Origin: a virus
Direction: 5' to 3' (one strand)
DNA length: 21,331 nt
Virus record (IMG/VR): IMGVR_UViG_3300002460_000191
Location: 1-21,331 of that record
Part shown: piece after piece, positions 4,681 through 20,815 of the stretch
Layout: every line of letters begins with the position of its first letter
Numbering within the stretch: position 1 is the stretch's first letter
The notes under the pieces: model-generated
Database searches by the model: none
Seen by the model: the letters and a program-made list of their open reading frames with translations, nothing else
Told to the model about the DNA's origin: nothing
Program-made: the position numbers and the translations under genes

Positions 4681-4808
4681 ATAAGAAAACCCTACGAAGG
4701 ATTATTGGTGTGCGACTGATGTTACTCGTTTGGCCTTACGGTAGACATAAGTATTACTCGTACCGATTGTATAGGTTGGCAACTTGGGTTGCAGATGGTG
4801 GTTACTGA
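4677..4808 (+). CDS. Hypothetical 43-aa basic protein
   Basis: GTG start at 4677 overlapping the HAD stop (GTGA), ending TGA 4806-4808 overlapping the terL ATG (TGATG). The peptide has a hydrophobic stretch IIGVRLMLLVWPY (residues 9-21) followed by a Tyr/Arg-rich tail. CTCCGAGG upstream is a fair ribosome-binding site. It bridges exactly the gap between two confident genes with coupling at both ends. It may be a short membrane peptide or a coupling leader for terL. Confidence 0.45.
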   Translation: MNKKTLRRIIGVRLMLLVWPYGRHKYYSYRLYRLATWVADGGY

Positions 4809-6430
4809 TGGACAAAGAACAAGTAAGAGCACAGGCCCACATACTCAACCCTGCGGTATGGGTATTAGATAACGAGCTGATCAATGAAAACCAGCAGCCG
4901 TTTGAGTTCGACGACCACCGCTTCATGCTACAACCCTACGCTGACTCTAGCCCTGACCAAGTAATTATGAAATCAGCACAGGTCGGGTGGTCAGTAGCGG
5001 CGATACTTAAGAGCGTCCATGCCGCCGCATTATTAAAGCTGAATGTTATATACATACTGCCCACCAGAAACGCCTCTGGTGAGTTCGTAGTACCTAAGGT
5101 TAATCCGATGTTACAGCGCAACCCATCATTAGCCGCTCTGGTCAAAAGTACCGATAACAAGTCACTGAAACAGGTAGGCGACAGGTTTATTTACTTCAAG
5201 GGTGCGTTCCACAGGGGTGAGGCCGTTTCTACTACTGCTGACCTCGTGATAGCTGACGAGTTTGACATATCCGACCAAGCAGTATTAACGACCTATGAAT
5301 CACGCTTACAAGCTTCAAAATACGCCTGGTTCTGGCGGTTTTCTAACCCAACAATCCCAGGCTTCGGGGTGCATGAGCTGTTCCAAGAGTCTGACCAGAT
5401 GACTTGGTTCGTGACCTGTCCCCATTGCGGGTATGAGTGGTACATGGAGTTCGAGCGAGGCGAGAGAAGCCACCATGTAGATGTTGAGAAAGGGATATAC
5501 GCTTGCGGTAAGTGCCTGAAAGAACTGCCCGATGACGATCGACAATCAGGCAGGTGGATCGCCAGATACCCGAATCGAACTAGACGCGGTTATCACATCT
5601 CCCAGTTGATTGTGCCTTGGGTGCCAGCTAAGAAGATTGTCCAACAATCGACCAAATCTCCTGATTTCTTTAATAACTTCGTACTAGGGCTTCCGTATCA
5701 AGCTAGTGAACTCCTAGTAAACCGTGACTCGATACTAGGCTGTCTATCCAGAGATGTAGGCAAAAGACAGGACTTCGTACTGGGAGTCGATAACGGACTT
5801 ATCAAGCACTGGGTGCTGGGTAACAGGGAAGGAATCTTAGCTTACGGCAAAACTGAGCACTGGGAAGACATCGAGCGCATGATTAAGACCTATAATGCTA
5901 CAACTGTAATAGACGCACTGCCTGATTTCACGATTCCTCAACAGTTAGTCCAGAAGTACCGAGGGAAAGTACACGTCCACTACTACGTCCACAATGCCAA
6001 GGATATAGATGTTTCGAGAACGGGTGACGGCATGAAGCAGGGTGTTATCCAGTCGGACAGGACTAAGATATTCGACCAAGTGGCCGCTGAGTTTAACTCT
6101 AGGAACTTCGCCATCTATGTTGGCGAACACGCTATGAATGATTACATCTACCACTGGGAGAATATGTACCGAATTGTCGAGGAAGATACTCGTGGAATCG
6201 AACGGGGTAAATGGGAAACCAAAGAGAACCGGCCCGACCACTGGGCTCACGCCACAGTTTATTACCGTGTTGGGGTAGGTAAGGCTCTAGGCCCGGACGA
6301 CTCAGGTGCGGTCAGAGGGCCACAGCCCACCAAGAAGGAGGCGATAACGGTTGACCCTGTGACCAATACCGTGCCGGCGATAGATGTTCTGGAAATGGCA
6401 AGGAAAACTAATCGAAAGGTCAAGATATGA
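4808..6430 (+). CDS. terL: Terminase large subunit, lambda gpA-like
   Basis: 540 residues; ATG 4808 is preferred over the TTG at 4784 because it is coupled to the previous stop. This is the ATP-driven DNA-packaging motor and nuclease that docks on the portal. The adenine/Walker A region is KSAQVGWS (residues 55-62), very close to the KSARVGYS of lambda gpA, and Walker B is LVIADEFD (146-153). A zinc site CPHC...CGKC (204/207, 233/236) is also typical of the gpA family. The C-terminal nuclease carries acidic residues in LGVDNG (Asp328), VIDALPD (Asp369, Asp373) and PDHWAHA (Asp477). It ends by overlapping the next gene by four bases (ATGA). Confidence 0.93.
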   Translation: MDKEQVRAQAHILNPAVWVLDNELINENQQPFEFDDHRFMLQPYADSSPDQVIMKSAQVGWSVAAILKSVHAAALLKLNVIYILPTRNASGEFVVPKVNPMLQRNPSLAALVKSTDNKSLKQVGDRFIYFKGAFHRGEAVSTTADLVIADEFDISDQAVLTTYESRLQASKYAWFWRFSNPTIPGFGVHELFQESDQMTWFVTCPHCGYEWYMEFERGERSHHVDVEKGIYACGKCLKELPDDDRQSGRWIARYPNRTRRGYHISQLIVPWVPAKKIVQQSTKSPDFFNNFVLGLPYQASELLVNRDSILGCLSRDVGKRQDFVLGVDNGLIKHWVLGNREGILAYGKTEHWEDIERMIKTYNATTVIDALPDFTIPQQLVQKYRGKVHVHYYVHNAKDIDVSRTGDGMKQGVIQSDRTKIFDQVAAEFNSRNFAIYVGEHAMNDYIYHWENMYRIVEEDTRGIERGKWETKENRPDHWAHATVYYRVGVGKALGPDDSGAVRGPQPTKKEAITVDPVTNTVPAIDVLEMARKTNRKVKI

Positions 6431-6681
6431 GATTTGATGAACCCCTAAGACATGATGACGACCCGCCTATTTCAGTATTCCTGTCCAGCGACAAGCATTC
6501 GGATGGGTTGTACCACATCGTCCACTGTTTCTACTGCGGTAAACCTTATAGCACGACAGTCAACACGATTACACGGGTTCTAGTAGACCAACCGGCTAAT
6601 GTTGCTGTAGCCACAGTCCATACGGGCATTGGAAACACCTGTAAAAGGTGCAAAGCCACATACCGATTCGTCATGCTATAA
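6427..6681 (+). CDS. Zinc-ribbon protein downstream of terL
   Basis: 84 residues, ATGA-coupled to terL. Cys34/Cys37 (CFYC) and Cys72/Cys75 (CKRC) form a zinc ribbon split by about 35 residues of beta-rich sequence. The N-terminus is acidic and His-containing. Its last codons overlap the -10 region of an extended promoter (6674-6682). The position between terminase and portal suggests a packaging or head role, but no family is recognised. Confidence 0.65.
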   Translation: MRFDEPLRHDDDPPISVFLSSDKHSDGLYHIVHCFYCGKPYSTTVNTITRVLVDQPANVAVATVHTGIGNTCKRCKATYRFVML

Positions 6682-6714: not shown

Positions 6715-6741
6715 CAGGGGTAAATTGCTTATTCGCCCCTG
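6715..6741 (+). other. Hairpin enclosing the -35 of the portal promoter
   Basis: CAGGGG (6715-6720) pairs with CCCCTG (6736-6741), extendable by one T-G pair, with a loop of about 13-15 bases. The loop contains TTGCTT, the -35 of the next promoter. There is no T-run after it. In RNA from the upstream operon it would form just before the portal promoter; as DNA it could be an operator-like inverted repeat. Confidence 0.35.
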
Positions 6742-6753
6742 ATTTGCTATAAT
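6725..6753 (+). promoter_or_regulatory. Portal promoter, class II (hairpin leader)
   Basis: -35 TTGCTT (6725-6730), 17-base spacer, -10 TATAAT (6748-6753) with an extended TGC. A transcript would start near 6760, a few bases before the AAGCCC hairpin. One of four promoters in the window with the same spacing to a terminator-like hairpin. Confidence 0.8.
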
Positions 6754-6763
6754 ACATACCAAC

Positions 6764-6796
6764 AAGCCCACACTGGCTATCAGTGGGGCTTTTTTT
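6764..6796 (+). terminator. Terminator-like leader hairpin before the portal gene
   Basis: AAGCCC (6764-6769), a bulged A, then CACTG pairs with CAGTG and GGGCTT (6781-6791), an 11-bp stem with a five-base loop, followed by seven T. It has the form of a strong intrinsic terminator but lies between the promoter and the portal ATG, so it would stop transcripts at about 37 nt unless read through. The internal GGCT (6775-6778) can pair with AGCC (6765-6768) instead. Confidence 0.75.
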
Positions 6797-6800
6797 ATTT

Positions 6801-8840
6801 ATGGAAGAAACTACACCCTCAGACGAACAGGCGGCGATTGATATAGGTATCAAGGACGTTGACCTACTGCGCGAAATGCGTACGTCGGTTGAAGCGTCCG
6901 AAAAGTTCTGGAACGAAAACCCTAAATTCAAGCTCAAGGAAACGATAGAGAACAACATGAACCTCTACCTGCCGAACCACTGGAAGGGCAAGGAGGTCTA
7001 CGAGCACGAGAAAGAGAATCTTTACCAAGACCCCCGCATATTCATATCAGTCGAAACGATTATGGGCATGGTGGCTAGTAAACCGGCCTATCCCGAGGTC
7101 GCGCCCGATGAAGATACTGTAATAGCCCGTAAGTTAGCTGGTGATGTCCAAGAGGCGTGTTTCGCCCACGCCAAGAAATACCGCGTTGACGACCTTCAGG
7201 GCGTGGCCGGTAGGAACATGATAATCAAGAGAATCGGCTGGATTAAACTTCGTTATGACAGCACGATTGATGATATAAAACCCGAGGTATGCGACCCGCT
7301 TGATATAACTGTAGACAAAGACGCGCGGTTCATGGGCAATCCGCGGTTTATAGCCCATAGGATTAGAAACAAGCCAGCCGAAGAATTGATAGCCATGTTT
7401 CCCGGCGGTGAGCAAGCGATACTAAAAGCATGGGGCTGTGAGAGACAAAAGAAGAACGGCGATCTGGTGGCTTACAAATCCCAGTTAAGCAAGCGCAAAG
7501 ATGTCTGGGAGATATGGTTTACCTATTATAAGGACGGCCCGAAGGAAGGGCTGATGGTCTGTGATTACGACTTCCAAAACATGTTCTTCAAAGGTCCGAA
7601 CCCCAACTGGAATTATGAGGAGGAAGAAGATTCGCTGACTAACTTCCTAGACACCCCGCCTAAACCCTTCATAGAGTTCGTGTACTTGTCAGACGGGATT
7701 ACATTCATTCCTCCGACCAGCGCGGTAGAACAAGCCGCCGGCTTGCAGAAGAACCTTGACAAACGGGGCAAGCAGATAATCGAGAACGCCGACCAGTCGG
7801 CCGGTGGGATAGTATTCAGTACCGACGCGATGACCAAAGAGGAGGCCGAGAAGTTGATCGGTGCGCCTGATGAGCGAGTAGGAGTTAAGGGCAAGGTAAC
7901 AGATGCTATGATGCGCCTAGCTCCTAATCTACTCCCGACCTATGTAATAGAGGACAAGGTTGACGCTCGTAATGAGATAGACGCTATCTTCGGGACTCAT
8001 AAGCCGACAAGGGGCGAATCAACTAACCGTACAGCGACGCAGGATGTCTTACAGCAACAGCAGGACCTTACTCGCCAAGATGAGATTTCAAGAGCCTTGC
8101 AAAGGGCGATGTCTAAGTATTATCAGATTCTTGTGCAGATGATGAAGGTCTATTACCGGGAAGACCACTGGTTCAAAGTCAACGGCGAGGACGGACAGTT
8201 CGACTTTATTGTGATGCGTTCAGACCTTATCCGTGACGGTATTGATGTGTCAGTCCAAACTGGTTCGATGGCACCGCCGGACAAGATTAGTGAGAGAAGC
8301 GCGGTCATGCAGTTACTACAAGCTGATATGGTTGACCCAATGACAGTATATGAAACACTAGGCATCCCGAACCCCAAGAAGACCCTCGAGCGAACAATTA
8401 AGTGGAAACTCGACCCCATGTCCTTCAGCACCGAAGTCCAAGACGAGACGTTTGAGCGACAGGCCTTCATGGATATACAGATGCTTAACAGGGGTGAATT
8501 CCCCAAGCTGAGAGGTGAAATTACTCCACGCCACCTAGAGTTCCATCGACAGTACATGAGCGGCGGTGAGTATGACGAGCTGGAAGACAATATCAAGAAC
8601 CTGCACCTAGAACACGTCAAGATGGAAATGCAACAGGCTAATAAACTCTTACAAACCGCCATGTCCCAGGCCCCGACTCAACCCGAGCTAGATGCCGCGG
8701 CTAAGCAGGAAACTCAGCAAGCCCAATCAGCCGTAAGTATGGGCGTGGCTCAACCGGCAGAGCAACCGCCGGGCGCAGCACCAGCCCCGCAGGGTTCATC
8801 CGAACAGCAGTCCAACAGCGGACAGCTTCCAATAGCTTAA
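6801..8840 (+). CDS. Portal protein
   Basis: 679 residues from ATG 6801; the GTG at 6783 lies inside the terminator hairpin and is rejected. The portal is the dodecameric ring at the capsid vertex through which DNA enters, docking terminase and later the tail adaptor. The length, the N-terminal acidic helical region, and the C-terminal part (SVQTGSMAPPDKISERSAVMQL, about residues 490-510, and the LGIPNPKKTLE loop) resemble large P22/SU10-type portals. The C-terminal 60 residues are Gln, Ala and Pro rich and disordered, as in portals with a barrel extension. It follows terL and precedes the scaffold, the standard order. There is no clear Shine-Dalgarno: the ATG directly follows a U-rich tract after the hairpin. 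Confidence 0.85.
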   Translation: MEETTPSDEQAAIDIGIKDVDLLREMRTSVEASEKFWNENPKFKLKETIENNMNLYLPNHWKGKEVYEHEKENLYQDPRIFISVETIMGMVASKPAYPEVAPDEDTVIARKLAGDVQEACFAHAKKYRVDDLQGVAGRNMIIKRIGWIKLRYDSTIDDIKPEVCDPLDITVDKDARFMGNPRFIAHRIRNKPAEELIAMFPGGEQAILKAWGCERQKKNGDLVAYKSQLSKRKDVWEIWFTYYKDGPKEGLMVCDYDFQNMFFKGPNPNWNYEEEEDSLTNFLDTPPKPFIEFVYLSDGITFIPPTSAVEQAAGLQKNLDKRGKQIIENADQSAGGIVFSTDAMTKEEAEKLIGAPDERVGVKGKVTDAMMRLAPNLLPTYVIEDKVDARNEIDAIFGTHKPTRGESTNRTATQDVLQQQQDLTRQDEISRALQRAMSKYYQILVQMMKVYYREDHWFKVNGEDGQFDFIVMRSDLIRDGIDVSVQTGSMAPPDKISERSAVMQLLQADMVDPMTVYETLGIPNPKKTLERTIKWKLDPMSFSTEVQDETFERQAFMDIQMLNRGEFPKLRGEITPRHLEFHRQYMSGGEYDELEDNIKNLHLEHVKMEMQQANKLLQTAMSQAPTQPELDAAAKQETQQAQSAVSMGVAQPAEQPPGAAPAPQGSSEQQSNSGQLPIA

Positions 8841-8873
8841 GAAGTATGGTATAATGTGTAAACATAAGGAGTA
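8827..8873 (+). promoter_or_regulatory. Scaffold promoter, class I (16-nt SD leader)
   Basis: -35-like TTCCAA (8827-8832), 17-base spacer, extended -10 TGG with TATAAT (8850-8855), then GTAAACATAAGGAGTA (8858-8873), whose AAGGAG (8866-8871) is the ribosome-binding site six bases before the ATG at 8877. The 16-base leader is identical to the one before the HNH gene at 13338. The transcript's untranslated leader would be only about 15 bases. Confidence 0.8.
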
Positions 8874-8876
8874 GGC

Positions 8877-9830
8877 ATGGCAGATAAAGTAGATGCCCCA
8901 GCGGAAGCTGTAGGCGCAGACGAGCCACAAGTTACTGGCCCAACATCAACAAACCTAGAAAATGAAATTGAAAGTGCGTTAGAGGAGGCACCAAGTGAAG
9001 AAGTCAATGATAGTCCCGCATCCGATGTGGGAGAAGGTTCCGGTGAAGAAGGGAACGATGGTTCCGGGGACATTGCTGGAAATCAAGGAGATAGTGATGA
9101 TGAAGGACGAAGCGTGGGAGATGATGACGCAGCTCCTATACCCCCTCCCAGTCCAGCGCCAGAATACAACCAACCAGCCCCCGAACTAGACACCGACATA
9201 TCAATACCGGCAGACCACAAGATTGTCTTGCAGGGATTTGACAAAGACGGTAATCCTAAAGAGTTCTACCTGACATCAACGGCTGATTTAGCCAAACTAC
9301 CCAAGAGTGGATTTGAACCGGCTAATTATCCGCATTTGATGGCTGTGTCGGCGGAACTCGCCAGACGAGCCGTGCGTGAGGAAGACGCTGATGCCGCCAG
9401 AACTAGTCTGGAACAAGAAACCCAAGCCCGTGAACAAGCCGCGAGAGAAGCAGAAGATTTACGCAATACATGGACGGGTGAGGCGGAAGAACTGGCTAAG
9501 AATGGTCAACTACCATCAGTTCCCAAGACCGCCAAAGAACAGAACGACCCCGAACATCCCTATAATAAAAGGGTCAACGAGGTCAAAGAGTTCATGCGTG
9601 AGGAGCTGAAAGCCAAACGTCCGTTACAGAGCTTTGTACATGCACTAGGATTACTAGAAGCAAAAGAACTAAAAGCTGAAAAAGCTACCAAGCAGAAAGA
9701 GATTGACGAGCGTAAAAAACGCTCAGGATCGCTGGTGATGGGTTCCGGTTCTGGCAATTCTACTCCATCTACCGGACTACGACCCGGCATGAGTGTTGAT
9801 GCCGTCATTGACGAAGCACTAGCGACTTAA
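8877..9830 (+). CDS. Capsid scaffolding protein
   Basis: 317 residues. Scaffolds guide procapsid assembly with the capsid protein and leave or are degraded before packaging. Position between portal and major capsid gene, an extremely acidic low-complexity N-terminal third (Glu, Asp, Ser, Gly, Pro to about residue 105), a charged helical, coiled-coil region (about 160-205 and 235-285) and a short Gly/Ser linker before a helical C-terminus (SVDAVIDEALAT) are all typical. The C-terminal helix is the expected capsid-binding end. There is no protease motif, so it is a plain scaffold rather than a protease-scaffold fusion. It has its own strong promoter, consistent with high copy number. Confidence 0.75.
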   Translation: MADKVDAPAEAVGADEPQVTGPTSTNLENEIESALEEAPSEEVNDSPASDVGEGSGEEGNDGSGDIAGNQGDSDDEGRSVGDDDAAPIPPPSPAPEYNQPAPELDTDISIPADHKIVLQGFDKDGNPKEFYLTSTADLAKLPKSGFEPANYPHLMAVSAELARRAVREEDADAARTSLEQETQAREQAAREAEDLRNTWTGEAEELAKNGQLPSVPKTAKEQNDPEHPYNKRVNEVKEFMREELKAKRPLQSFVHALGLLEAKELKAEKATKQKEIDERKKRSGSLVMGSGSGNSTPSTGLRPGMSVDAVIDEALAT

Positions 9831-9839
9831 AAAACACGG

Positions 9840-9868
9840 TTGTAAAAATGCGTTAAGTGTGCTATAGT
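9840..9868 (+). promoter_or_regulatory. Capsid promoter, class II
   Basis: -35 TTGTAA (9840-9845), 17-base spacer, -10 TATAGT (9863-9868) with upstream TGC. Starts ten bases after the scaffold stop. The hairpin AAGCCC begins exactly ten bases after the -10. Expected start of transcription is near 9875, about 97 bases before the capsid ATG. Confidence 0.8.
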
Positions 9869-9878
9869 TCTAGATAAG

Positions 9879-9914
9879 AAGCCCCTTTGGCTCAGGCCAA
9901 GGGGGCTATTTTTT
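9879..9914 (+). terminator. Terminator-like leader hairpin before the capsid gene
   Basis: AGCCCCTTTGGC (9880-9891) pairs with GCCAAGGGGGCT (9896-9907) through 12 bp, one a G-U, around a TCAG loop, and is followed by A and six T. It would end the scaffold transcript efficiently and also terminate RNA from the promoter at 9863 after about 40 nt. GGCT (9889-9892) can pair with AGCC (9880-9883) in an exclusive alternative. The capsid ribosome-binding site (GGGGAA, from 9961) lies downstream. Confidence 0.8.
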
Positions 9915-9971
9915 ATACCCCGAAACCTCAACAAAGACGGCTTCCTCTATTAATCAACAAGGGGAATAAGT

Positions 9972-11042
9972 ATGGTATTCGGAACCAGAGTTACGTCCAT
10001 CACCCAGGACAAGATTGTTCCTGTAGTCATCGATGCCGTTCTGAACAGCAATGTTCTGATGGCTCGTATCTTCATGCGGGACAACAAGCGCTGGAGTGGT
10101 GAGACGCTACGCATACCTCTACAGGTAAGCAAACCGACTACTGGTGGTGCTTTCGACGGTGTAGATACCTTCGACACATCATTGGCTGACACCCGCCAGC
10201 GGCAATCATTCGAGCCCAAGGCGTACTATCAGAGCGTAGTCGTATCTGGCATGGAAGCATCGGCGAACTCCGGTTCAGATGCCGAAGTGCTCAATCTAGT
10301 AAAAGTAACGATGGAAGAAGCCAAGAACGCCATGTGCGATTCTGTAGGCACACTTCTATATAGCACAGGTTCTGGCAAGAACTTCCAAGGTCTAGGCGCA
10401 ATCGTTGATGATGGTACTAACACCTCAACCTACGGTTCACTCTCACGAACAACCTACAGCTTGCTAAACTCAACAGTTACCGCATCAGGCGGGACGTTGA
10501 CACTGGCAAACCTAGCAACTCCATTCCGAGGTGCTTCGGCCGCCAGCTCTGCTCGGAACCGACCAACCGTTTTGGTAACAACCGAAACTGTCTGGGACTT
10601 GTACGAGTCACTACTGACACCAACCGTTCGAGCCAACTACGACGCATCAGGCCGCCCACAGGTTACTGCCTTCAGTAAGCCGGGCCGCATGATCCAAGGC
10701 GAGGAAGCTCTCAAGGGCGCACAGGGATTTGACGCACTATCATGGCGCGGCATTCCGGTAGTAGCCGATGAGAAGGCCGACTCCGGTGTAGTCTTCCAAT
10801 TAAATGAGAACTTCCTGCACTGGTACTCGCTCAAGGGTGTGGACCTACAGACTAAGGAAGTCATTAAGGGCGGGGTTGACTCAGTTTACTCCGAAGCTCC
10901 TAAGGACTACCCGATACAGTGGAAAGACCTACAGATGCCTACCAACCAGTACGCAGAGGTTGGACAGTTCATCATGCTTGGCAACCTGATCTCTGAGCAT
11001 ACTCGACGACACGCAAAACTAACCGGCGTAACGAGCGCTTAA
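9972..11042 (+). CDS. Major capsid protein, HK97-fold
   Basis: 356 residues; GGGGAA in AAGGGGAATAAGT upstream supports the ATG. This is the shell subunit. The size, the position after the scaffold, an N-arm followed by a basic E-loop-like segment (RDNKRWSGETLRIPLQVSK, about residues 36-54), a helical spine region (about 100-125) and a P-domain segment RNRPTVLVTTETVWDLYESLL (about 194-215) with the later FDALSWRGIPVVAD strand are typical of HK97-fold capsid proteins. There is no N-terminal delta domain, which agrees with a separate scaffold. Only one cysteine (in NAMCDS). Confidence 0.9.
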   Translation: MVFGTRVTSITQDKIVPVVIDAVLNSNVLMARIFMRDNKRWSGETLRIPLQVSKPTTGGAFDGVDTFDTSLADTRQRQSFEPKAYYQSVVVSGMEASANSGSDAEVLNLVKVTMEEAKNAMCDSVGTLLYSTGSGKNFQGLGAIVDDGTNTSTYGSLSRTTYSLLNSTVTASGGTLTLANLATPFRGASAASSARNRPTVLVTTETVWDLYESLLTPTVRANYDASGRPQVTAFSKPGRMIQGEEALKGAQGFDALSWRGIPVVADEKADSGVVFQLNENFLHWYSLKGVDLQTKEVIKGGVDSVYSEAPKDYPIQWKDLQMPTNQYAEVGQFIMLGNLISEHTRRHAKLTGVTSA

Positions 11043-11052
11043 GGAGAATAAT

Positions 11053-11775
11053 ATGGGATTACAAGCACAAGCAGAAATCTTCGGCCAAGATTTTAGAGAC
11101 ACTTCATCGGTTAAGCAAAACCGAATTGGGCAGAAGGGCGAAACACTAGATGGCCGCGCCTATCGCTACTCATTAGTCGGAGGCGTAACTCTCGACCCAG
11201 GTAAAATCTGTGTCGCTGAAACAGTTGACACCGACGCAACCAACAGGACAGTGGCTCGAACATACGTAGCCGGTGTAACTGAGGTCATCGTAGATGCCGC
11301 AGGTGCAGTAGCAGCTAACCGCTACACGGATGGTTACTTAAGCATCACCGACGCGACGGGAGAGGGCGGAGCAAGCTATCTCGTAGAAAGCAACACTGTA
11401 ACTTCTGGTGCAGCCGAAATGACCGTTGTGCTGGCAGAGCCGACTGAGGTAGCTCTAACCATAGACGTATCTGAGGCTAGCTTAACCGCGAACCCTTGGA
11501 GTGGAGTCCTCGTATCCATTGCAGATCAGCTAGACATGGCTGTGGGTATCCCGAACGTCAGCATCACTAACGCAGAGTACGGCTGGTTACAGACTAGAGG
11601 CGTTGTCGCTGCACTAGCAGACGAATCATACGCAATAGGTCAAGAGCTGGTAATCGGCTCAAGCGTTGTCGGCGCTCTCGAAGCCCACGACGCGGCCGGC
11701 GAACAGACAGTCGGTGTAGCAATAGTCGCAGGCGTAGATACTGAATACCGCGAAGTTTACCTAAACATAGACTGA
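11053..11775 (+). CDS. Structural protein next to capsid, probable decoration protein
   Basis: 240 residues, ten bases after the capsid stop with TAAGGAGAATA as ribosome-binding site, so cotranscribed and probably abundant. The sequence is almost all beta: short Gly/Thr/Val-rich strands, acidic, no cysteine. The N-terminal GQKGETLDGRAYRYSLVGG and later VGVAIVAGVDTEYREVYLNI segments look like a beta-barrel that caps capsomers. Head decoration or a minor capsid protein is the best call from position and composition; I do not recognise a named family. Confidence 0.65.
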   Translation: MGLQAQAEIFGQDFRDTSSVKQNRIGQKGETLDGRAYRYSLVGGVTLDPGKICVAETVDTDATNRTVARTYVAGVTEVIVDAAGAVAANRYTDGYLSITDATGEGGASYLVESNTVTSGAAEMTVVLAEPTEVALTIDVSEASLTANPWSGVLVSIADQLDMAVGIPNVSITNAEYGWLQTRGVVAALADESYAIGQELVIGSSVVGALEAHDAAGEQTVGVAIVAGVDTEYREVYLNID

Positions 11776-11804
11776 TAAGCGGACGTAAGAAATTAACTAA
11801 CTCG

Positions 11805-11831
11805 CCGTTGACCGGGCTAGACCCGAGACGG
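11805..11831 (+). other. Intergenic hairpin between decoration and beta-helix genes
   Basis: Outer CCGT/ACGG (11805-11808, 11828-11831) encloses CGGG-CTAGA-CCCG (11813-11825). No T-run follows, and AAAGGAG for the next gene begins about 10 bases later. It probably modulates mRNA stability or stoichiometry between the capsid pair and the next genes. Confidence 0.4.
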
Positions 11832-11852
11832 AGAAATTAAAAGGAGAACACA

Positions 11853-12812
11853 ATGGGAAAAGCAAGAGATCACATACCAACACTAAGATACGGAAATAAG
11901 ATATACCCGGAAGACATCGCCAGTATTCTAGGCTTGCCTTCAGTGGGAAATATCTACTACGTTGACCCCGGAACGGGAAGTGATAGCGCCGGCGGAAAGA
12001 GTCGTGATGACGCTTTCGCCACAGTCGCTGCTGCCTTTGCGGCACTAACAGCCGATCAAGACGATGTGGTTGTAATAGTCGGTTCTTCCTCTACGGGTAG
12101 AACTTCGGAAACTGTAGCTATCAATTGGAGCAAGAGACGAACCCACCTAGTAGGGAACGGCCCCGCAAGGAAAGTAAACCCTCGTAATGGGATGGGCTTT
12201 GCAGCCGCCCTGTCACCATGTCTTACGATTTCGGCTACTAACTGTTCATTTACCAACATCTCTATCGCCAGCTTTACCGACAACGATGTTTTAGTAGAAG
12301 TTACCGCTGGTAATAACACTTTCAACAACGTCCACTTCCAAGGCATCGGCCACGCCACTCCCGCTGGGGAAACCGGCGCACGATGCTTACTGATAACGGG
12401 TGCGGGTGAAAACGAGTTCTACAACTGTGTGTTCGGCATTGACACTGTTACCCGATCGGCTGCTAATGCCACTGTTGAAGTAACAGGCAGTTCGGCTAGA
12501 AACCGATTTGTTGGCTGTGACTTTGTGGTATTCACTTCCGATGCTGGAGTAGTCCACGTCAAGGCTGATACTGGAAATGCCTTTGAACGATTCCTACTGT
12601 TTGACAACTGCCTATTCCTTAACGCTGACTTGGATAGCTCGACTACCCTGACTGTGAACATGGACTTGTCCGCGACAGGAAATGGTACGGTCTTCCTGAA
12701 GGACTCATGGTCAAAGGGTGCTACTGACTGGACAAATACCTTCAGTCACCTATTCGTCACAATGCCTCTGGCCGACACCGATGAGGGCGGACTGACTAAA
12801 ATAGGTACTTAA
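11853..12812 (+). CDS. Right-handed parallel beta-helix structural protein
   Basis: 319 residues with AAAAGGAG upstream. An N-terminal segment with NIYYVDPGTGSDSAGGKSRDDAFATVAAA (about 33-60) is the classical entry of pectate-lyase-like beta-helices. After that come repeated N-x-F or F-x-N-C turns (CSFTNISIA, NTFNNVHF, NEFYNCVFG, NRFVGCDFV) spaced about 20-25 residues, which give the asparagine/aromatic ladders of a beta-helix. Beta-helices in phages form tailspikes, sugar-binding or depolymerising fibres and, less often, head decorations. Gene order next to the capsid favours a virion surface role. No catalytic triad can be assigned by eye. Confidence 0.7.
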   Translation: MGKARDHIPTLRYGNKIYPEDIASILGLPSVGNIYYVDPGTGSDSAGGKSRDDAFATVAAAFAALTADQDDVVVIVGSSSTGRTSETVAINWSKRRTHLVGNGPARKVNPRNGMGFAAALSPCLTISATNCSFTNISIASFTDNDVLVEVTAGNNTFNNVHFQGIGHATPAGETGARCLLITGAGENEFYNCVFGIDTVTRSAANATVEVTGSSARNRFVGCDFVVFTSDAGVVHVKADTGNAFERFLLFDNCLFLNADLDSSTTLTVNMDLSATGNGTVFLKDSWSKGATDWTNTFSHLFVTMPLADTDEGGLTKIGT

Positions 12813-12814
12813 AC

Positions 12815-13279
12815 ATGCCACTCGTAGCCGGCCAACAGATAGATGCGAACTATCGCACCGTTAATGGCAACCAAGCCTTTCTATTCAAAGCACCCTGGAC
12901 GTTCGTTACTTTAACCACGGGCGCAACGGGTGCTCATACGGTTTTTACTGTAACTGGTGACTGGCTAGTATCAGCGTTTGGGATATGCAACACTAACCTC
13001 GCAGGAGCAGGGACTATAGAACTAGGTGTAGCTGGCAACACTGCCGGCCTGATAGCTCAAATTGCCGATGCCGAGAACCTTGATGACGGCGATAATTGGG
13101 TAGACGCTACTCCCGAAGTCGGGGTATCAGCCGTTCCCGGCTCGTTTATCCTGAATGATGGTGCGGATATTATCCTAACTATAGGAACTACCGCCATTAC
13201 CGCCGGCCAAGTTGATTTTTACCTTACAGGTCGCCCATTAGAAAATGACAGTGCGATTACTGTAACGACCCCAGCTTAG
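12815..13279 (+). CDS. Beta-rich structural protein, unknown function
   Basis: 154 residues, two bases after the previous stop. Alternating hydrophobic strands with Gly/Thr/Asn turns ([41 protein letters not shown]) suggest a jelly-roll or immunoglobulin-like sandwich. No cysteine motif. Weak ribosome-binding site (AGGTACT), so likely translated by coupling to the beta-helix gene. A partner or tip for the beta-helix or a second decoration protein is plausible; nothing is diagnostic. Confidence 0.6.
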
Positions 13280-13306
13280 TTCACGCTTTAATTCTTACGC
13301 TTTTTC

Positions 13307-13333
13307 TGTTATAATAGGTAAACATAAGGAGTA
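13307..13333 (+). promoter_or_regulatory. Class I promoter before the HNH gene
   Basis: Extended -10 TGT with TATAAT (13310-13315), then GTAAACATAAGGAGTA (13318-13333), identical for 16 bases to the leader before the scaffold gene, with AAGGAG (13326-13331) as ribosome-binding site seven bases from the ATG. The -35 is poor (TTTAAT at 13287-13292). Confidence 0.75.
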
Positions 13334-13337
13334 CCGT

Positions 13338-13814
13338 ATGCAAGACGACGGTTATAGGTCGAGTGGAATCGCACATGGAATGACCCTAACCCCAGAGTAT
13401 CGTGCTTGGATTGGTATGCGGCGGCGTTGCTACAACCAGGAACGTAAAGAGTACCCATTATATGGCGGGCGTGGTATCAAAGTATGCCAACGCTGGCAAC
13501 GCAATTTCCTGGCCTTCTATGAAGATATGGGGCCTCGGCAAACTGGCTTAACACTTGAGCGGATAGATAACGACGGTGATTACTCGCCAGAGAACTGTCG
13601 CTGGGCTACACCGAAAGAACAAGCCCAAAACCGCAGAGCGGGTTGGGGTAAGTATGGACGTGGCATTTACTTCTATATCAAGCATGGCAACCCCCGTTTT
13701 CGGACAGAACTAACGAAAGATGGCAAGCGCTATGTAGGGAGCTACGTTAAAACTTTAGATGAGGCATTAATGCAACTTAATCAATTAAAGGAGAAAATAT
13801 ATGGAACCAACTGA
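13338..13814 (+). CDS. HNH/AP2-like endonuclease, probable homing-type element
   Basis: 158 residues. Residues 20-100 match a widespread phage family with [13 protein letters not shown], a [11 protein letters not shown] strand, and [19 protein letters not shown] leading to EQAQNRR. It has the beta-beta-alpha-metal layout of HNH proteins but the canonical first histidine of the motif is replaced (ERIDN), as is usual for this family. The C-terminal third ([23 protein letters not shown]...[13 protein letters not shown]) looks like a degenerate AP2 DNA-binding fold. It sits alone under a strong promoter between structural genes, and its own 3' end supplies the AAAGGAG (13787-13793) for the next gene. 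Homing-type mobility is inferred from family and position. Confidence 0.75.
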
Positions 13815-14274
13815 TGATGGATTCAGCTCCCGTTGGAGAACATTTCATCCGCTAGATACTGTTCGGGTTCAGAACCCGTTTGACGAAACCTTCACATGGA
13901 GGGTCGCAGACGAAAACAACAGACAAAACGAATATTCAATAAAACCCCATGACACAGCCACGCTACCCGGAGGATTGATCGCAACTCTCGGAGTAAAAGG
14001 TATGGTTGATAAGTTGATCATGGATGACAACAAGCCGCACTCAATGTGGGATAAAAAAGTACGCACAGAATACGAAGAAAGAGTCATCTTGAGCGTCAAG
14101 CAGACCGGCAAGGTCAGCGAACCCCAGGAACCGCAGGAGGTACGCTCTGTGGACCTCTCAGACGGCAATACTAAGGCCGAAAAAGTAAAAAAAACAGAGG
14201 AAAAAGAGCCGGAGTTTCCGGAACTCACTAAAGCCACCAAGAACCTACCCAAAGAAGCCGAAATAGAGGTCTGA
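13801..14274 (+). CDS. Hypothetical structural-region protein with charged tail
   Basis: 157 residues, overlapping the HNH gene by 14 bases. Residues 15-95 form a beta domain with a characteristic segment [18 protein letters not shown]...[32 protein letters not shown] that I associate with small phage proteins encoded close to capsid genes. From about residue 100 it is low complexity, rich in Glu, Lys and Pro. Function unknown; candidates are head completion or a capsid-associated protein. Confidence 0.6.
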
Positions 14275-14275
14275 A

Positions 14276-15067
14276 ATGTCAGACCCTTTCACCTCGCTCT
14301 CTCAACGGGTAAAGGACTTAGAGGAAACGGAGAAGCGCAAGGAGGCGAGTATCGCCCGATTGGTTGAATTGGAGAAACAACAGGCCGATGAGGTCAGACG
14401 GCTAAATAAACTATCCGTAGAAGCCTCAGACACCCTAGAAGAACAAGTTGCTAAGGTCCGACAGGCCAAAAAAGCGTTTGCCGACTGGCACGATGAGAAA
14501 ATGGCCGAACTCGACGCGAAAACAGCCAAGTTAGCACAAGACCAAGTGACTTTCGACAACCAAAAACAGGAGTTTGAAGCCGAGCAGACCGCCATGCTAT
14601 CCAATTTCAAGAAAGGTACTGACAAAATTACCGAGGGTAAGTCATTAGTTGATATAGACCGCGCGGAACTGACCAAACAGGCCGAAAAACAGCGGCTAAG
14701 AGAGCAGAAACTGGATAAACAGGCCGAAAAACTGGACTCTGAAAGGGTCAGTATCAAAGAATTGAAGGCCGGATTATCTCATAGCCAGGAATTGATGGAT
14801 GAGATGGTACAGAAAGCCAAAGACAGAGAACAAGAGAGTATCAAGAAACTAGCTCAAGCCCACGACAAGGAGGCCATCGCTGATAAAAATCTTAAGGAAT
14901 CGAGAACCAAGCTCAAAGATGTCCGGGCTAGGGAAACGGCTATAGAGAAGCGCCGGGTAGAACTGGATAACTGGGAAGGTGAGCTGAACAAGAAGGCCGT
15001 CATGTTAGCCGATAGGGATAGGACTGGCCGAGCGAACCAGAAACTACTTACAAAAACCTCAGAATAA
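14276..15067 (+). CDS. Long coiled-coil protein
   Basis: 263 residues, one base after the previous stop. Residues 8-250 are almost uninterrupted charged alpha-helix with heptad-like hydrophobic spacing (LEETEKRKEASIARLVELEKQ and onward), Ala, Glu, Lys, Gln rich and free of cysteine and proline. Such rods act as scaffolds, fibre stalks or length rulers. It is too short for a typical tape measure and sits far from a tail module, so a head or whisker-like stalk is possible. Its 3' end carries the -35 region of the next promoter. Confidence 0.6.
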   Translation: MSDPFTSLSQRVKDLEETEKRKEASIARLVELEKQQADEVRRLNKLSVEASDTLEEQVAKVRQAKKAFADWHDEKMAELDAKTAKLAQDQVTFDNQKQEFEAEQTAMLSNFKKGTDKITEGKSLVDIDRAELTKQAEKQRLREQKLDKQAEKLDSERVSIKELKAGLSHSQELMDEMVQKAKDREQESIKKLAQAHDKEAIADKNLKESRTKLKDVRARETAIEKRRVELDNWEGELNKKAVMLADRDRTGRANQKLLTKTSE

Positions 15068-15076
15068 TGCTATAAT
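15048..15076 (+). promoter_or_regulatory. Fibre-gene promoter, class II
   Basis: -35 TTACAA (15048-15053), 17-base spacer, -10 TATAAT (15071-15076) with upstream TGC. It overlaps the last codons of the coiled-coil gene. The hairpin AAGCCC begins ten bases after the -10. Confidence 0.8.
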
Positions 15077-15086
15077 CTAGGCAACG

Positions 15087-15119
15087 AAGCCCCCTTTGGC
15101 TCACATGGGGGGCTTTTTT
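15087..15119 (+). terminator. Terminator-like leader hairpin before the 15134 fibre gene
   Basis: AAGCCCCC (15087-15094) pairs with GGGGGCTT (15108-15115), followed by T to 15119. The loop holds TTTGGCTC (15095-15102), shared with the hairpins at 9886 and 18626. GGCT (15098-15101) can pair with AGCC (15088-15091). GGAG (15125-15128) and the ATG (15134) follow immediately. Confidence 0.75.
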
Positions 15120-15133
15120 ATTTTGGAGAAGAA

Positions 15134-16984
15134 ATGGCCGAAGCACGGCGCGATCAAAACTTTGTAACCGGCTTACTAGCCCACAGCAACGCTGACCAAA
15201 CAACGGTACTGCGACTATTAGCGGATAGTTCGACACAGCGTTTATTAGTTGATGCCACTGGTTCACTGACTGTTGATTCAGAGTTTCCAGCCGCCGCGGC
15301 ACTTGCTGATAACACAGCCAATCCGACCACTACTCTTGTCGGTGCGATGGGGCATCTGTGGGATGGTTCTACTTGGGATAGAGCGCCCGGCAACTCAACT
15401 GATGGTTCACTCGTAAACCTCGGTTCTAATAATGATGTGACTCTAAATGCTGGTTCCGCATCCATCGGTGTTCTAGGAGCAAACTCTGGCGTGGATATCG
15501 GTGATGTGACCATAAACAACGCCTCTGGTGCTAGTGCGGTGAATATCCAAGACGGTGGAAATGCAATTACAGTAGACGGAACTGTCACCGCTAACGCTGG
15601 TACTAACCTCAATACTTCGGCACTCGCCCTCGATGCAACACTGACCGGAGGGACGCAGAAATCGCAGTTAGTAGATGCTGGCGGAGAGGCCGCAACAGTA
15701 ACGGGTGGAAAACTGGATGTCAACGCTACGGTTGTCGGCGGTTCGGGTAGCTCAGCTGTAGATGATGCGGCCTTTGTCATAGCCACTGATACCGGTACGC
15801 CGGCAATGGGATTATTTGACGATACTAGCACTGATTCAGTCGATGAAAATGATGTCGGTGTCCTACGGATGTCTGGTAATAGAAATCTCTATATCCAGAT
15901 TAGGGATGCTGCTGGCAATGAGAGAGGGCTGAATGTTGATGCAGCCGGTAGTATTGGAGTTACCAACACTGGACTCACTGAACTGGCTGCCGCTATTGAT
16001 ACCGAAGTACAGGTTGATGTTGTTGGATCACTCCCGGCGGGTAGTGCAAAAGTAGGTGCAGTTGAGATACATGGTGCTGGAGTGTCTACCGCCGCAGAAC
16101 TTATAACCGATGGAGCAGATAACATATCTAATGCTACTAATCAGCTTATTGTAGGTTCTTGGCTATACGGTTTTGATGGCACTACTTGGGACCGGATAAG
16201 AGGAGATTCTACAGATGGCTTACTAGTTAATCTTGGCTCCAACAACGACACAACTATTACAGGCGATGCTCTTACGGCACTTCAAACAATAGACTCTAAT
16301 ACCGACTCGCTAGCGGTTGTAGGTGGCGGGACTGAAGCTACAGCCCTGCGAGTCACCATAGCAAATAACTCCACGGGTGTTCTGTCTGTTGACGACAATG
16401 GCAGTGCTTTGACTGTAGATAATGGAGGTACATTCGCCGTTCAAGTAGATGGAGATGCTTTAACTGCCCTGCAGTTAATAGACAACCCCGTTCAAGTAGA
16501 TGATGGGACTGGGTTTACTCCAGCTACTTCATCAGTATCAATGATTGGGGCTTTTGCTGACGATACTTCGCCGGATTCTGTGGACGAGGGAGATGTCGGT
16601 GCGGTAAGAATGAGTTTAGACCGGGCTCTGCATGTAGTAGATATGCCCAAAGCTACAGTGGCCTATGCGCCGTCCTCGGACATTTCAGCAGCTTATGAAG
16701 CATCCAGCGTCAGTAAGGCATCTGCTGGTATCCTGTGGGGCTTTTCAGGCTATAACTCCAGAACTTCAGCCCAATTCATCCAAATCCACAATGCTTCGTC
16801 TTTGCCGGCGGATACTGCAGTACCAGAACTGATTCTCTATGTGCCTGCCCAGTCTAACTTCTCATGGGATGGGGGCAGGTTTGGCTACTTTGCCGATACA
16901 GGGATTGTTTGGACAAACAGCAGTACCGGCCCCACGAAAACAATAGGAAGTGCTGACTGTTTTGTCACACTCATGTATTCATAG
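15134..16984 (+). CDS. Large repeat-containing fibre-like structural protein
   Basis: 616 residues. Short Gly/Asp/Val/Thr-rich strands throughout, no cysteine until near the end, as in fibrous phage proteins. Two sequence blocks are each present twice in alternation: LWDGSTWDR...[14 protein letters not shown] at about 74-101 and again at 344-372, and [20 protein letters not shown] at about 228-247 and again at 474-494. This shows duplication of a unit of about 250-270 residues. The last 110 residues (from about 507) are a different, aromatic-rich domain ending in [12 protein letters not shown] that may be the globular tip. Probably a head or tail fibre; receptor binding is inferred from architecture. 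Confidence 0.65.
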
Positions 16985-16992
16985 GAGTCATC

Positions 16993-17136
16993 ATGCCAAT
17001 AGTTTCATCTGGGGGATTTGGAATATCGGAATCAGCACAGCGACTAACTGTCTATCAAGATGAAATTGGTAGCCAGTTTGTCAATCAGAGTCTCTTTGAT
17101 TTTATCAATGGCACAGACATGAAGTGGATAGGCTAA
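16993..17136 (+). CDS. Hypothetical 47-aa protein between fibre genes
   Basis: ATG at 16993 with ATAGGAGTC upstream. The sequence (PIVSSGGFGISESAQRLTVYQDEIG...SLFDFINGTDMKWIG) is neutral, with a short strand and a C-terminal aromatic helix. It ends one base before the next ATG. It fills the gap exactly and has a good ribosome-binding site, which is the support for it. May be a minor fibre chaperone or connector, but no family is recognised. Confidence 0.5.
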   Translation: MPIVSSGGFGISESAQRLTVYQDEIGSQFVNQSLFDFINGTDMKWIG

Positions 17137-17137
17137 G

Positions 17138-18013
17138 ATGGCTGAGACTTTACCGCAAAGAGTACCATCACCTGACACCATACCTGCCAGCTCTAGCCTT
17201 CTATACATCGTTGACAACCCCTATACAACTCCAGTTGATAATGCCACTACCATTGCTGATGCCGTCACTAAAGGTAGTGGGTTATCTGACAGCACAGTGC
17301 TGGGCATTGCCTCAGGAGTTATGACCTCTGGCGTAGATGTGGCTGTCATTGATGGCGGAACTGGTGCATCAACAGCTTCTGGGGCTAGGAGTAATCTAGG
17401 GTTAGTAATTGGTACTGATATTGCTGCCCAAACACACGCCACACAGCATCAAAGCGGTGGCTCGGATGCCATAAAACTAGATGACCTTGCTACCCCTGAT
17501 GATAACACTGACCTAAATGCTTCAAGCACCAGACATGGGCTTTTGCCTAAACTACCCGGTGGCTCTACTAATTTTCTAAGAGAAGATGGTACTTGGGCTG
17601 CTCCCGGTGGCGGTGGTGGGTTGGGTTATGTTATTAACTTTCAAGCTCTGACTTCAAGCCCTGCTGATGGAGCTACTATATATATAGGCTTACAGCCAAG
17701 AGCACCAGTTACTACTGCTGGACAGCAAAAAATACGAATCCCTAAAACTGGAACTATCAAATATGCCTACATCTATTCTAGGGCTGGTACAGCTGGTACA
17801 AACCAGTCGTGGTCTGCTTATGTTAGATTAAATAACACTACCGATACACTTATTCAGACGCTCGCAGTCAGTACCAATGAGCGTATATGGGAAAACTCAG
17901 GTCTTAATATTTCTGTGGCGGCTGGAGACTATATAGAAATTAAGTTCGTGAATCCCACTTGGGCGACCAATCCAGCAACTTGGATACCGGGCGGATTTGT
18001 ATATATAGAGTAA
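17138..18013 (+). CDS. Tail/head fibre-like protein with GGTGAST repeat
   Basis: 291 residues. The motif VIDGGTGASTASGARSNLGL (about 70-89) is a well-known fibre-shaft hinge repeat of phage side fibres, followed by HATQHQSGGSDAI and STNFLREDGTWAAPGGGGG (about 143-161), another common fibre element that ends in a glycine linker. The remaining 130 residues (GYVINFQALTSS...WIPGGFVYIE) form a beta-sandwich that I read as a globular, receptor-facing tip. Trimerisation is expected from family knowledge. Confidence 0.75.
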   Translation: MAETLPQRVPSPDTIPASSSLLYIVDNPYTTPVDNATTIADAVTKGSGLSDSTVLGIASGVMTSGVDVAVIDGGTGASTASGARSNLGLVIGTDIAAQTHATQHQSGGSDAIKLDDLATPDDNTDLNASSTRHGLLPKLPGGSTNFLREDGTWAAPGGGGGLGYVINFQALTSSPADGATIYIGLQPRAPVTTAGQQKIRIPKTGTIKYAYIYSRAGTAGTNQSWSAYVRLNNTTDTLIQTLAVSTNERIWENSGLNISVAAGDYIEIKFVNPTWATNPATWIPGGFVYIE

Positions 18014-18022
18014 GGAGAAAAC

Positions 18023-18508
18023 ATGTCGACAGTCAACACAACCCCAAATATTTCACCCGGCATGGTGGTTCAGGTAGTTAGTTCTCTTACTACTGCTGTG
18101 GCTACTGGGACAACCGTTATTCCTCATGACGACTCGATCCCCCAGAATACCGAGGGTAATCAATTTATGACTTTAGCCATTACTCCCCAATCGGCGACTA
18201 ATATTCTGGTTATTGAGGCCCTAGTTTATATGTCTAACTCGGTTGCTGGGCATTTGATAGCTGCTCTTTTCCAAGACACAACTGCTGGTGCTTTAGCTGT
18301 TGGTGACGTTTTTGAAGCCACGGCTACAGCCGAGGATATGGTGCCAGTTAGGCATACTATGGCTGCTGGTACGACCTCGGCAACTACCTTTAAGATACGG
18401 GCTGGCGGCAATAATGCTGGCACTACGACATTCAATGGCTTCTCAGCGGGCAGGGCTTTTGGTGCAATTACTAAATCTTCAATAGTTATCTGGGAATACA
18501 AAGCATAG
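18023..18508 (+). CDS. Fibre tip/beta-sandwich structural protein
   Basis: 161 residues with TAAGGAGAAAAC before the ATG. Strand-rich and Ala/Thr-rich, with MVVQVVSSLTTAVATGTTVIPHDDS at the N-terminus and FNGFSAGRAFGAITKSSIVIWEYK at the C-terminus. I associate this layout with stand-alone jelly-roll tip domains found beside phage fibre genes. It probably sits on the fibre encoded just upstream. No adhesin specificity can be read. Confidence 0.6.
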   Translation: MSTVNTTPNISPGMVVQVVSSLTTAVATGTTVIPHDDSIPQNTEGNQFMTLAITPQSATNILVIEALVYMSNSVAGHLIAALFQDTTAGALAVGDVFEATATAEDMVPVRHTMAAGTTSATTFKIRAGGNNAGTTTFNGFSAGRAFGAITKSSIVIWEYKA

Positions 18509-18517
18509 CTCGACAAA

Positions 18518-18582
18518 CTACCTGCTCGGACGCTGATGGAGGTGAGGGCATAATCTCAATGGGTTTATTATTCCCAAGGTAG
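18518..18582 (+). other. Possible folded element upstream of the 18603 promoter
   Basis: The 158-base gap between genes (18509-18666) holds a CTACCT/AGGTAG pair (18518-18523, 18577-18582) enclosing a smaller TGGG/CCCA hairpin (18560-18563, 18573-18576). The stems are short. It could be the end structure of the fibre operon. Apart from the promoter and hairpin that follow I see no gene here. Confidence 0.25.
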
Positions 18583-18599
18583 AAATTACACCCCAAACC

Positions 18600-18608
18600 T
18601 GTTATAAT
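18600..18608 (+). promoter_or_regulatory. Class II promoter before the 18667 gene
   Basis: Extended -10 TGT with TATAAT (18603-18608). The -35 is not recognisable at 17 bases (TAGAAA). The leader AGCCCGC begins ten bases after the -10. The ATG within the box (18607) is rejected as a start. Confidence 0.7.
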
Positions 18609-18618
18609 GCTCTCTAGT

Positions 18619-18653
18619 AGCCCGCTTTGGCTCCCCGCCGAGGCGGTATTTTT
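18619..18653 (+). terminator. Diverged terminator-like leader hairpin
   Basis: This copy keeps AGCCCGCTTTGGCTC (18619-18633), with TTTGGCTC shared with two other hairpins, but its main stem is now the short CCGC-CGAG-GCGG (18635-18646), followed by A and five T. AGCC (18619-18622) can still pair with GGCT (18629-18632). It looks like a weaker or decayed member of the family. Confidence 0.6.
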
Positions 18654-18666
18654 ATTTGGCAAGAAA

Positions 18667-19924: not shown

Positions 19925-20815
19925 ATGTTGACTTACCAAAATATCTATCAGGAAGCCCAAGAACAGCTAGGAGATACATCGGCCCCTACTAAAACAGTCA
20001 TTGTCCAGGCACTGAATCAGGGCCAAAAAAAGTTCGCAGCCGTTATGCGTAGGGACTGGTATAACACCGAAAAAACATTTTCGTTAGTTGCTGACCAGCA
20101 GTATTACCGAATGCCCGAAGATTGTGTGCGGATGAAGGGACTACTGGTAACTATCGGCTCAACTATCTATCCCCTCGAGGAAATCGCCAATGAGGAACAG
20201 TGGCGGATACTGAATACTTCCACGACTACATCAGATCGTCCGAGGTTCTTCTTCGTACGAGGAGCCGATGAGTATGGTATCTGGCCGACACCTTCTTCCA
20301 GTTCAAGTAACGCCGGGAGGCTGATTTACCAACGGCGACAAAGGAATTTATCAACCGATAACTACACGACGGGAACTGTAACACTGACCAACGCCAGCGC
20401 CGCCGTAGTAGGTGATAGCACTACCTTCACCGCCCTAATGGTCAATCGCTATCTGAAAGCTGACGATCCAAGTGGTGACGGAGTGGCTTATAAAATCGCT
20501 TCCTTTACCTCGACTACTTCTATCGCTTTAGATAACACTTACGGTGGCACTACCGCCTCCGGACTGAGTTATGTAATAGGTGAAGCCCCCGACATTCCAG
20601 AGGAGTACCACGAATCTCTAGTGGATTATGCACTTTACAGGTGTTATCTGAGGCGCAGGGATGTCAACACGGCCAAAGAACTGAAGTCGCTATTCGACGA
20701 ATCCCTGAGTAATTGCAAAGAACAATACGGCTCAAAAACCACCTCAAATTACACGAGAGCTAGAAAACACCGTTATCCAAGTATCTTCAACAGTGAGCCG
20801 GGGGAAGTTACCTAG
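19925..20815 (+). CDS. Head-tail adaptor protein, SU10/gp6-like
   Basis: 296 residues; GGGGGTTTAATT precedes the ATG. Adaptors form a ring below the portal and connect it to the tail. N-terminal helices (YQNIYQEAQEQLGD...VIVQALNQGQKKFAAVMRRDWY, residues 4-47), then FSLVADQQYYRMPEDCVRMKGLLV and IYPLEEIANEEQW, match the SU10-type adaptor pattern. A beta insertion (about 148-225) with TVTLTNASAAVVGDSTTFTA is followed by the closing helices IPEEYHESLVDYALYRCYLRRRD. It lies after the fibre genes rather than beside the portal, which is unusual. Confidence 0.8.
   Translation: MLTYQNIYQEAQEQLGDTSAPTKTVIVQALNQGQKKFAAVMRRDWYNTEKTFSLVADQQYYRMPEDCVRMKGLLVTIGSTIYPLEEIANEEQWRILNTSTTTSDRPRFFFVRGADEYGIWPTPSSSSSNAGRLIYQRRQRNLSTDNYTTGTVTLTNASAAVVGDSTTFTALMVNRYLKADDPSGDGVAYKIASFTSTTSIALDNTYGGTTASGLSYVIGEAPDIPEEYHESLVDYALYRCYLRRRDVNTAKELKSLFDESLSNCKEQYGSKTTSNYTRARKHRYPSIFNSEPGEVT

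What the first reader, a model, noticed from the sequence alone, without database searches (positions are those of the whole stretch)
6748..18666. Four dispersed promoter-into-terminator cassettes in front of virion genes
Seen: at 6748, 9863, 15071 and 18603 an extended -10 box is followed 10-11 nt later by AAGCCC or AGCCC, a hairpin and a run of 5-7 T, before the start codon of a structural gene. With initiation about seven bases after the -10, each would give an RNA of only 37-40 nt ending in U. CTTTGGCTC is identical in three copies. Known: intrinsic terminators end transcripts, and here they lie between promoter and gene. Inference: either these are a family of tiny phage RNAs, or attenuators needing antitermination, or 5' hairpin caps that stabilise late mRNAs. 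I do not know a described system with this exact layout.
Basis: partly seen in the sequence, partly recalled or inferred. Interest (0 to 1): 0.85.

Follow-up and report, generated by a model that had tools for sequence, protein, structure and literature searches.

The report
Phage late promoters with built-in terminators
In this phage and a wide group of its relatives, the promoters of virion genes such as the capsid gene run straight into a terminator-like RNA hairpin before the gene starts, which looks like a built-in brake that must be read through, or overridden, to make virus particles.

Summary
All four cassettes (6748, 9863, 15071, 18603) are present and are the only ones in the window (four on +, none on -; shuffles average 0.12, maximum 1).

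The layout is conserved as structure, not sequence. Of 70 distinct capsid (MCP) leaders from related viral contigs, 36 have a terminator-like hairpin. Thirty of those 36 also have a strong sigma70-like promoter, against 3 of 34 leaders without a hairpin. When leaders are chosen by promoter score alone, the best early hairpin is followed by at least 5 T in 8 nt in 27 of 31 (6% of control windows).

New here: the first ~20 nt of the RNA can form a small covarying hairpin (P1) that shares bases with the terminator stem (P2), so the two compete.

Best reading: promoter-proximal attenuators of virion genes, working like lambda pR'-tR' or AlpA targets but probably recognised at RNA level: copies in one phage share no promoter-spacer motif, and no Q or NusG-type protein was found. 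The read-through trigger is unknown. A T7-like 5' stabiliser is the main rival. The literal CTTTGGCTC is private to this phage; it contains the 3' arm of P1.

The parts
6725..6753 (+). Promoter 1: weak -35 TTGCTT (6725-6730), TGC, -10 TATAAT (6748-6753)
6764..6796 (+). Leader hairpin P2 (6764-6791, -16.3 kcal/mol) and T-run to 6796; alternative helix P1 AGCC 6765-6768 with GGCT 6775-6778; portal ATG at 6801
9840..9868 (+). Promoter 2: -35 TTGTAA (9840-9845), spacer 17 with TG, -10 TATAGT (9863-9868)
9880..9914 (+). Leader hairpin P2 (9880-9907, -22.7 kcal/mol) and T-run to 9914; P1 AGCC 9880-9883 with GGCT 9889-9892; MCP ATG at 9972
15047..15076 (+). Promoter 3: -35 CTTACA (15047-15052), spacer 18 with TG, -10 TATAAT (15071-15076)
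15086..15119 (+). Leader hairpin P2 (15086-15116, -19.8 kcal/mol) and T-run 15114-15119; P1 AGCC 15088-15091 with GGCT 15098-15101; ATG of the 616-aa ORF at 15134
18580..18608 (+). Promoter 4: -35 TAGAAA (18580-18585), spacer 17 with TG, -10 TATAAT (18603-18608)
18619..18653 (+). Leader hairpin P2 (18622-18646, -16.9 kcal/mol) and T-run to 18653; P1 AGCC 18619-18622 with GGCT 18629-18632; probable ATG at 18667

Best explanation
Each cassette is a promoter-proximal transcription attenuator of a virion gene or operon. Host RNA polymerase with the housekeeping sigma starts at the promoter (inferred). The nascent leader can first form a weak 5'-terminal helix P1, then the stronger hairpin P2 followed by a U-run, so most transcripts should stop after about 36-45 nt. 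Read-through into the gene happens when termination is suppressed late in infection, by a phage factor acting on the leader RNA or on polymerase, or by conditions that favour P1 over P2. Shown here: the layout, its conservation, the link of promoter, hairpin and T-run, and compensatory variation in P1 and P2. Inferred: real transcription starts, real termination, timing, and the trigger.
For: Four of four sites in the window, none on the other strand, 0.12 expected. 36 of 70 MCP leaders have the hairpin (shuffled leaders: 15 of 140), and a promoter of score 11.5 or more is in 30 of these 36 against 3 of 34 leaders without it. Leaders picked by promoter alone: 27 of 31 best hairpins are followed by at least 5 T in 8 nt (control 6%), mean energy -10.7 against -4.0 in shuffles. 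The hairpin-to-T-run distance is fixed while stem-to-ATG ranges 11-71 nt, as expected of a terminator and not of a translation element; fixity is partly set by the detection rule, but one search used no T rule. Strand bias in near-complete relatives: 34 of 273 terminator-like sites on the MCP strand have a promoter 4-30 nt upstream, 5 of 374 on the other. P1 pairs with its own leader better than with others': 0 of 500 swaps for MCP-type, 12 of 1000 for window-type. A model from ten copies found a further copy not used to build it (L089 15698-15741, E 2e-7) just upstream of an ORF.
Against: No transcript data, so neither starts nor termination are shown. No antiterminator identified: no NusG or Q family hit in 15 genomes and no shared promoter-spacer element among copies of one phage (29% identity within, 30% between phages). 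P1 is weak (about -0.1 to -6 kcal/mol) and P2 should win at equilibrium. Other promoters in the same modules have no hairpin, so this cannot be the only late control. Many capsid start codons lie only 10-16 nt after the hairpin, which fits a leader role as well.
Confidence: 0.5

Rival explanations
1. 5' stabiliser and translation leader: P1 or P2 sits within a few nt of the mRNA 5' end and shields the late mRNA from 5'-end-dependent decay, with the U-rich linker helping ribosomes; termination is only partial. This would work like the T7 gene 10 leader.
For: P1 begins about 1-7 nt from the predicted 5' end. MCP, the gene that needs the most protein, carries the element most often. Several genes lack a clear Shine-Dalgarno sequence and start just after the U-run.
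Against: The T-run is attached to the stem whatever the distance to the ATG (11-71 nt), and genes with their own Shine-Dalgarno sequence keep it. A stabiliser needs no U-run directly after a GC-rich stem.
Confidence: 0.26
2. Insulator or dosage element: the hairpin mainly ends transcripts arriving from upstream genes and lets a fixed fraction of the local transcripts leak through, setting the protein ratio without a regulatory switch.
For: In the window the hairpins lie shortly after the stop codon of the upstream gene (for example stops at 9830 and 15067), where an operon-end terminator would lie.
Against: For insulation alone the terminator should precede the promoter; the reverse order is kept in dozens of phages, and leaders without a strong promoter also lack the hairpin.
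Confidence: 0.13
3. The cassettes are genes for tiny trans-acting RNAs of about 40 nt.
For: Promoter plus terminator is the anatomy of a small RNA gene; one sub-threshold match to an Enterococcus small RNA family lies exactly on cassette 2 (Ref55, E 0.6, 31.1 bits against a cut-off of 43).
Against: Sequence is not conserved between phages, only structure. The literal motif occurs elsewhere only in stretches without promoter or T-run. The elements sit just upstream of gene starts.
Confidence: 0.06
4. P1 is a DNA operator for a repressor or activator, and the hairpin is an ordinary terminator.
For: P1 is a short inverted repeat at the very start of the transcribed region.
Against: Its sequence differs between copies within one phage (for example L008: AGCT/AGCT, GGTT/AGCC, GGT/ACC), and some pairs are G-U (10 of 206), which a DNA dyad would not favour.
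Confidence: 0.04

Closest known systems
Lambdoid late promoter pR' with terminator tR' and Q antitermination (lambda, 21)
   Same: Sigma70 promoter followed by an intrinsic terminator before late (virion and lysis) genes; the predicted default is a short aborted RNA
   Different: Lambda has one such promoter for the whole late region; here there are several short copies per phage in front of separate genes. No shared spacer element, and no Q-family hit.
AlpA targets in Pseudomonas aeruginosa (PMC7969949)
   Same: Intrinsic terminator between promoter and first gene, at more than one target
   Different: AlpA loads at a DNA element between -35 and -10; no such element is shared among copies here. 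AlpA relatives were not searched for.
HK022 put RNA (PMC9378689)
   Same: Nascent RNA structure near the start of a phage transcript that bears on termination (my comparison)
   Different: put suppresses termination and pausing; here the main hairpin itself looks like a terminator. Sequences were not compared.
T7 gene 10 leader (own knowledge; Olins et al. 1988 is cited in PMC8545117)
   Same: Hairpin at the 5' end of a capsid mRNA followed by a U-rich stretch
   Different: The U-run here directly abuts a GC-rich stem, as in an intrinsic terminator
PhiKZ p40 5' UTR RNA (PMC8545117)
   Same: Phage 5' UTR with two stem-loops, the second possibly causing premature termination before the start codon
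   Different: One locus, about 180 nt; no family of copies described

Membership tests
Q-type late antitermination | Sigma70-type promoter followed by an intrinsic terminator before late genes | tested here: met
   By sequence only:
Q-type late antitermination | Shared binding element between -35 and -10 of the target promoters | tested here: not met
   Spacer identity 29% within phages, 30% between
Q-type late antitermination | Q-family protein encoded by the phage | tested here: not met
   No PF06530 hit in 15 records; other Q families and unrelated Q-like proteins not tested, and several records may be fragments
Q-type late antitermination | Sigma-dependent pause at a -10-like element in the first transcribed bases | not tested
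   No scan was made for such an element
Attenuator (terminator with competing antiterminator helix) | Terminator with GC-rich hairpin and U-run between promoter and gene | tested here: met
   By sequence:
Attenuator (terminator with competing antiterminator helix) | Alternative helix that shares bases with the terminator stem | tested here: met
   40 of 44 leaders share at least 2 nt; specific pairing by swap tests. P1 is weak, and any early helix reaching the 5' arm would overlap.
Attenuator (terminator with competing antiterminator helix) | Condition-dependent read-through | not testable with these tools
   Needs transcription experiments
T7 gene 10-type 5' stabiliser | Hairpin within a few nt of the mRNA 5' end | tested here: met
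   P1 starts about 1-7 nt from the predicted +1; the +1 itself is predicted
T7 gene 10-type 5' stabiliser | Longer mRNA half-life or higher yield owing to the hairpin | not testable with these tools
   Needs mRNA decay measurements
Any Rfam family | Match at the curated score | tested here: not met
   No gathering hit in the window; best sub-threshold hit on a cassette is Ref55, E 0.6

The most novel reading that the evidence does not exclude
A phage-wide RNA switch: dispersed leaders of about 40 nt, each with a 5' antiterminator helix that competes with a terminator, jointly opened late in infection by a phage-encoded RNA-binding factor (possibly the small zinc-finger protein next to the terminase) to start virion synthesis.
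Probability: 0.22. Interest if true: 0.8.

Novelty: new variant of a known kind. Interest (0 to 1): 0.62.

Why it matters
If termination is real and conditional, a large group of uncultivated phages (nearest named relative: a TM7/Saccharibacteria phage) times its virion genes with many small attenuators in front of single genes, where lambda uses one late promoter for all. It would also give a new RNA element to search for in viral genomes. Each cassette is short enough that the question can be settled by simple in vitro transcription.

Tried and rejected
CTTTGGCTC as a conserved recognition motif: viral hits lack promoter and T-run, and its GGCT is explained as the 3' arm of P1. Rfam membership: none. 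Q-type spacer element: none. NusG and Q proteins: none. Host control: two genome-contig scans found no Patescibacteria genome with MCP or TerL relatives, so whether host genes use the same layout is untested. The small four-cysteine protein between terminase and portal gives no significant family match, and its predicted structure is of low confidence (mean pLDDT 57); its co-occurrence with cassettes may simply reflect one phage clade. Boundaries from my energy-based hairpin finder are wrong for a few leaders (L008, L017, L021, L065), which I left out or read by eye. Literature searches for the exact layout found nothing useful, but the library lacks most subscription papers.

Full report
What the window is. 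The window is a 21,331-base viral record carrying terminase large subunit (4808-6430), portal (6801-8840), an acidic ORF in the usual scaffold position (8877-9830), major capsid protein (MCP, 9972-11042) and further structural-type genes, all on +. The closest named phage by MCP is TM7 phage DolZOral124_53_65 at 42% identity. The host is therefore probably a Patescibacterium, but that is a guess: no host genome with relatives was found.

Observation. All four cassettes exist as described. A strict scan finds only those four, all on +, against 0.12 expected in shuffles. Hairpin energies are -16 to -23 kcal/mol. Neither promoters nor terminators alone are over-represented; it is the order promoter, hairpin, T-run, gene at close spacing that is special.

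Conservation. MCP relatives at 37-62% identity were collected. Seventy distinct MCP leaders fall into two groups: 36 with a terminator-like hairpin and 34 without. A promoter scoring at least 11.5 is present in 30 of the first and 3 of the second; by eye, two of those three (L034, L042) have degenerate hairpins. When leaders are chosen only by promoter score, 27 of 31 have at least 5 T in the 8 nt after the best hairpin, against 6% of control windows, and the hairpins are far more stable than in shuffles. The distance from -10 to hairpin is 9-32 nt, mostly 15-20, and from stem to ATG 11-71 nt. In near-complete relatives, 34 of 273 terminator-like sites on the MCP strand have a promoter 4-30 nt upstream, against 5 of 374 on the other strand. 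Cassettes recur in front of MCP, portal, the 19925-type structural gene, the 15134-type gene and one further conserved gene family. A covariance model built from ten copies finds one further copy in the relative G001 at E about 2e-7. The letters of the hairpin change freely: the literal window motif occurs elsewhere only in stretches without promoter or T-run. The named TM7 phage itself has no cassette at its MCP gene.

A second helix. Before the 3' arm of the terminator is made, the leader can form a short hairpin, P1. In MCP-type leaders its 3' arm overlaps the foot of the terminator's 5' arm (GGTC/GACC, GGTT/AACC, GGC/GCC and others). In window-type leaders its 5' arm does so (AGCC/GGCT, with AGCT/AGCT, AGTC/GACT and AACC/GGTT in relatives). 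Pairing is specific to each leader: 0 of 500 swaps between leaders reach the observed energy for the MCP type and 12 of 1000 for the window type, where copies within a phage are near-identical and weaken the test. In 40 of 44 leaders the early fold shares bases with the terminator stem P2, though any early helix touching the 5' arm would do so, and P1 is weak. Copies in one phage can differ in P1 sequence, and some pairs are G-U, which favours RNA over a DNA operator.

Interpretation. The T-run clings to the stem and not to the start codon, so the element is best read as a true intrinsic terminator. It is mostly absent where the promoter is absent, so it serves that promoter's own transcript. 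Strong consensus promoters in front of capsid genes need some brake early in infection; this is the logic of lambda pR'-tR' and of AlpA targets (PMC6606751, PMC7969949). The present elements differ in being several per phage, very short and dispersed, in lacking a shared spacer element and recognisable Q or NusG proteins, and in keeping a competing 5' helix. Within a phage, leaders resemble each other more than between phages (58% against 44% identity) while spacers do not, which points to recognition at the leader, or to recent duplication. The trigger is unknown. The main rival, a 5' stabilising leader, cannot be excluded by sequence.

Candidate factor. A small four-cysteine protein gene between terminase and portal occurs in all 15 cassette-group phages examined, with a positional counterpart in the window, and was not detected in five phages of the other group. 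It superficially recalls Mu Com, a zinc-finger RNA-binding activator of translation (PMC6483171), but no profile supports that. This is a lead only.

Verdict. Observation confirmed; interpretation partly supported; a new variant of a known kind, with a moderate chance of being a new RNA switch.

Noticed in passing
Related phages, e.g. G008 13512, G009 11548, G011 43776, G012 18911 (record coordinates): A second promoter class: TGnTATAAT followed about 6 nt later directly by ATG, which predicts leaderless mRNAs for many phage genes.
   Followed up: partly
8850-8879 and 13310-13340: Two hairpin-less promoters share almost the same leader (TATAAT-NNGTAAACATAAGGAGTA-ATG), in front of the ORF before MCP and of an HNH-type ORF.
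   Followed up: no
6427-6681: Small four-cysteine (zinc-ribbon-like) protein between terminase and portal; counterparts in all 15 cassette-group phages examined, not detected in five others.
   Followed up: partly
13338-13814 and 20815-21291: Two ORFs that look like HNH homing endonucleases inserted in the structural module (judged by eye from the translations).
   Followed up: no
L087, L088 and gene family 19: Several related phages carry GroEL-like (Cpn60) and GroES-like genes.
   Followed up: no
L119: A contig binned as a Methanoregulaceae archaeon encodes a TerL 43% identical to the window's; probably a binning error.
   Followed up: no
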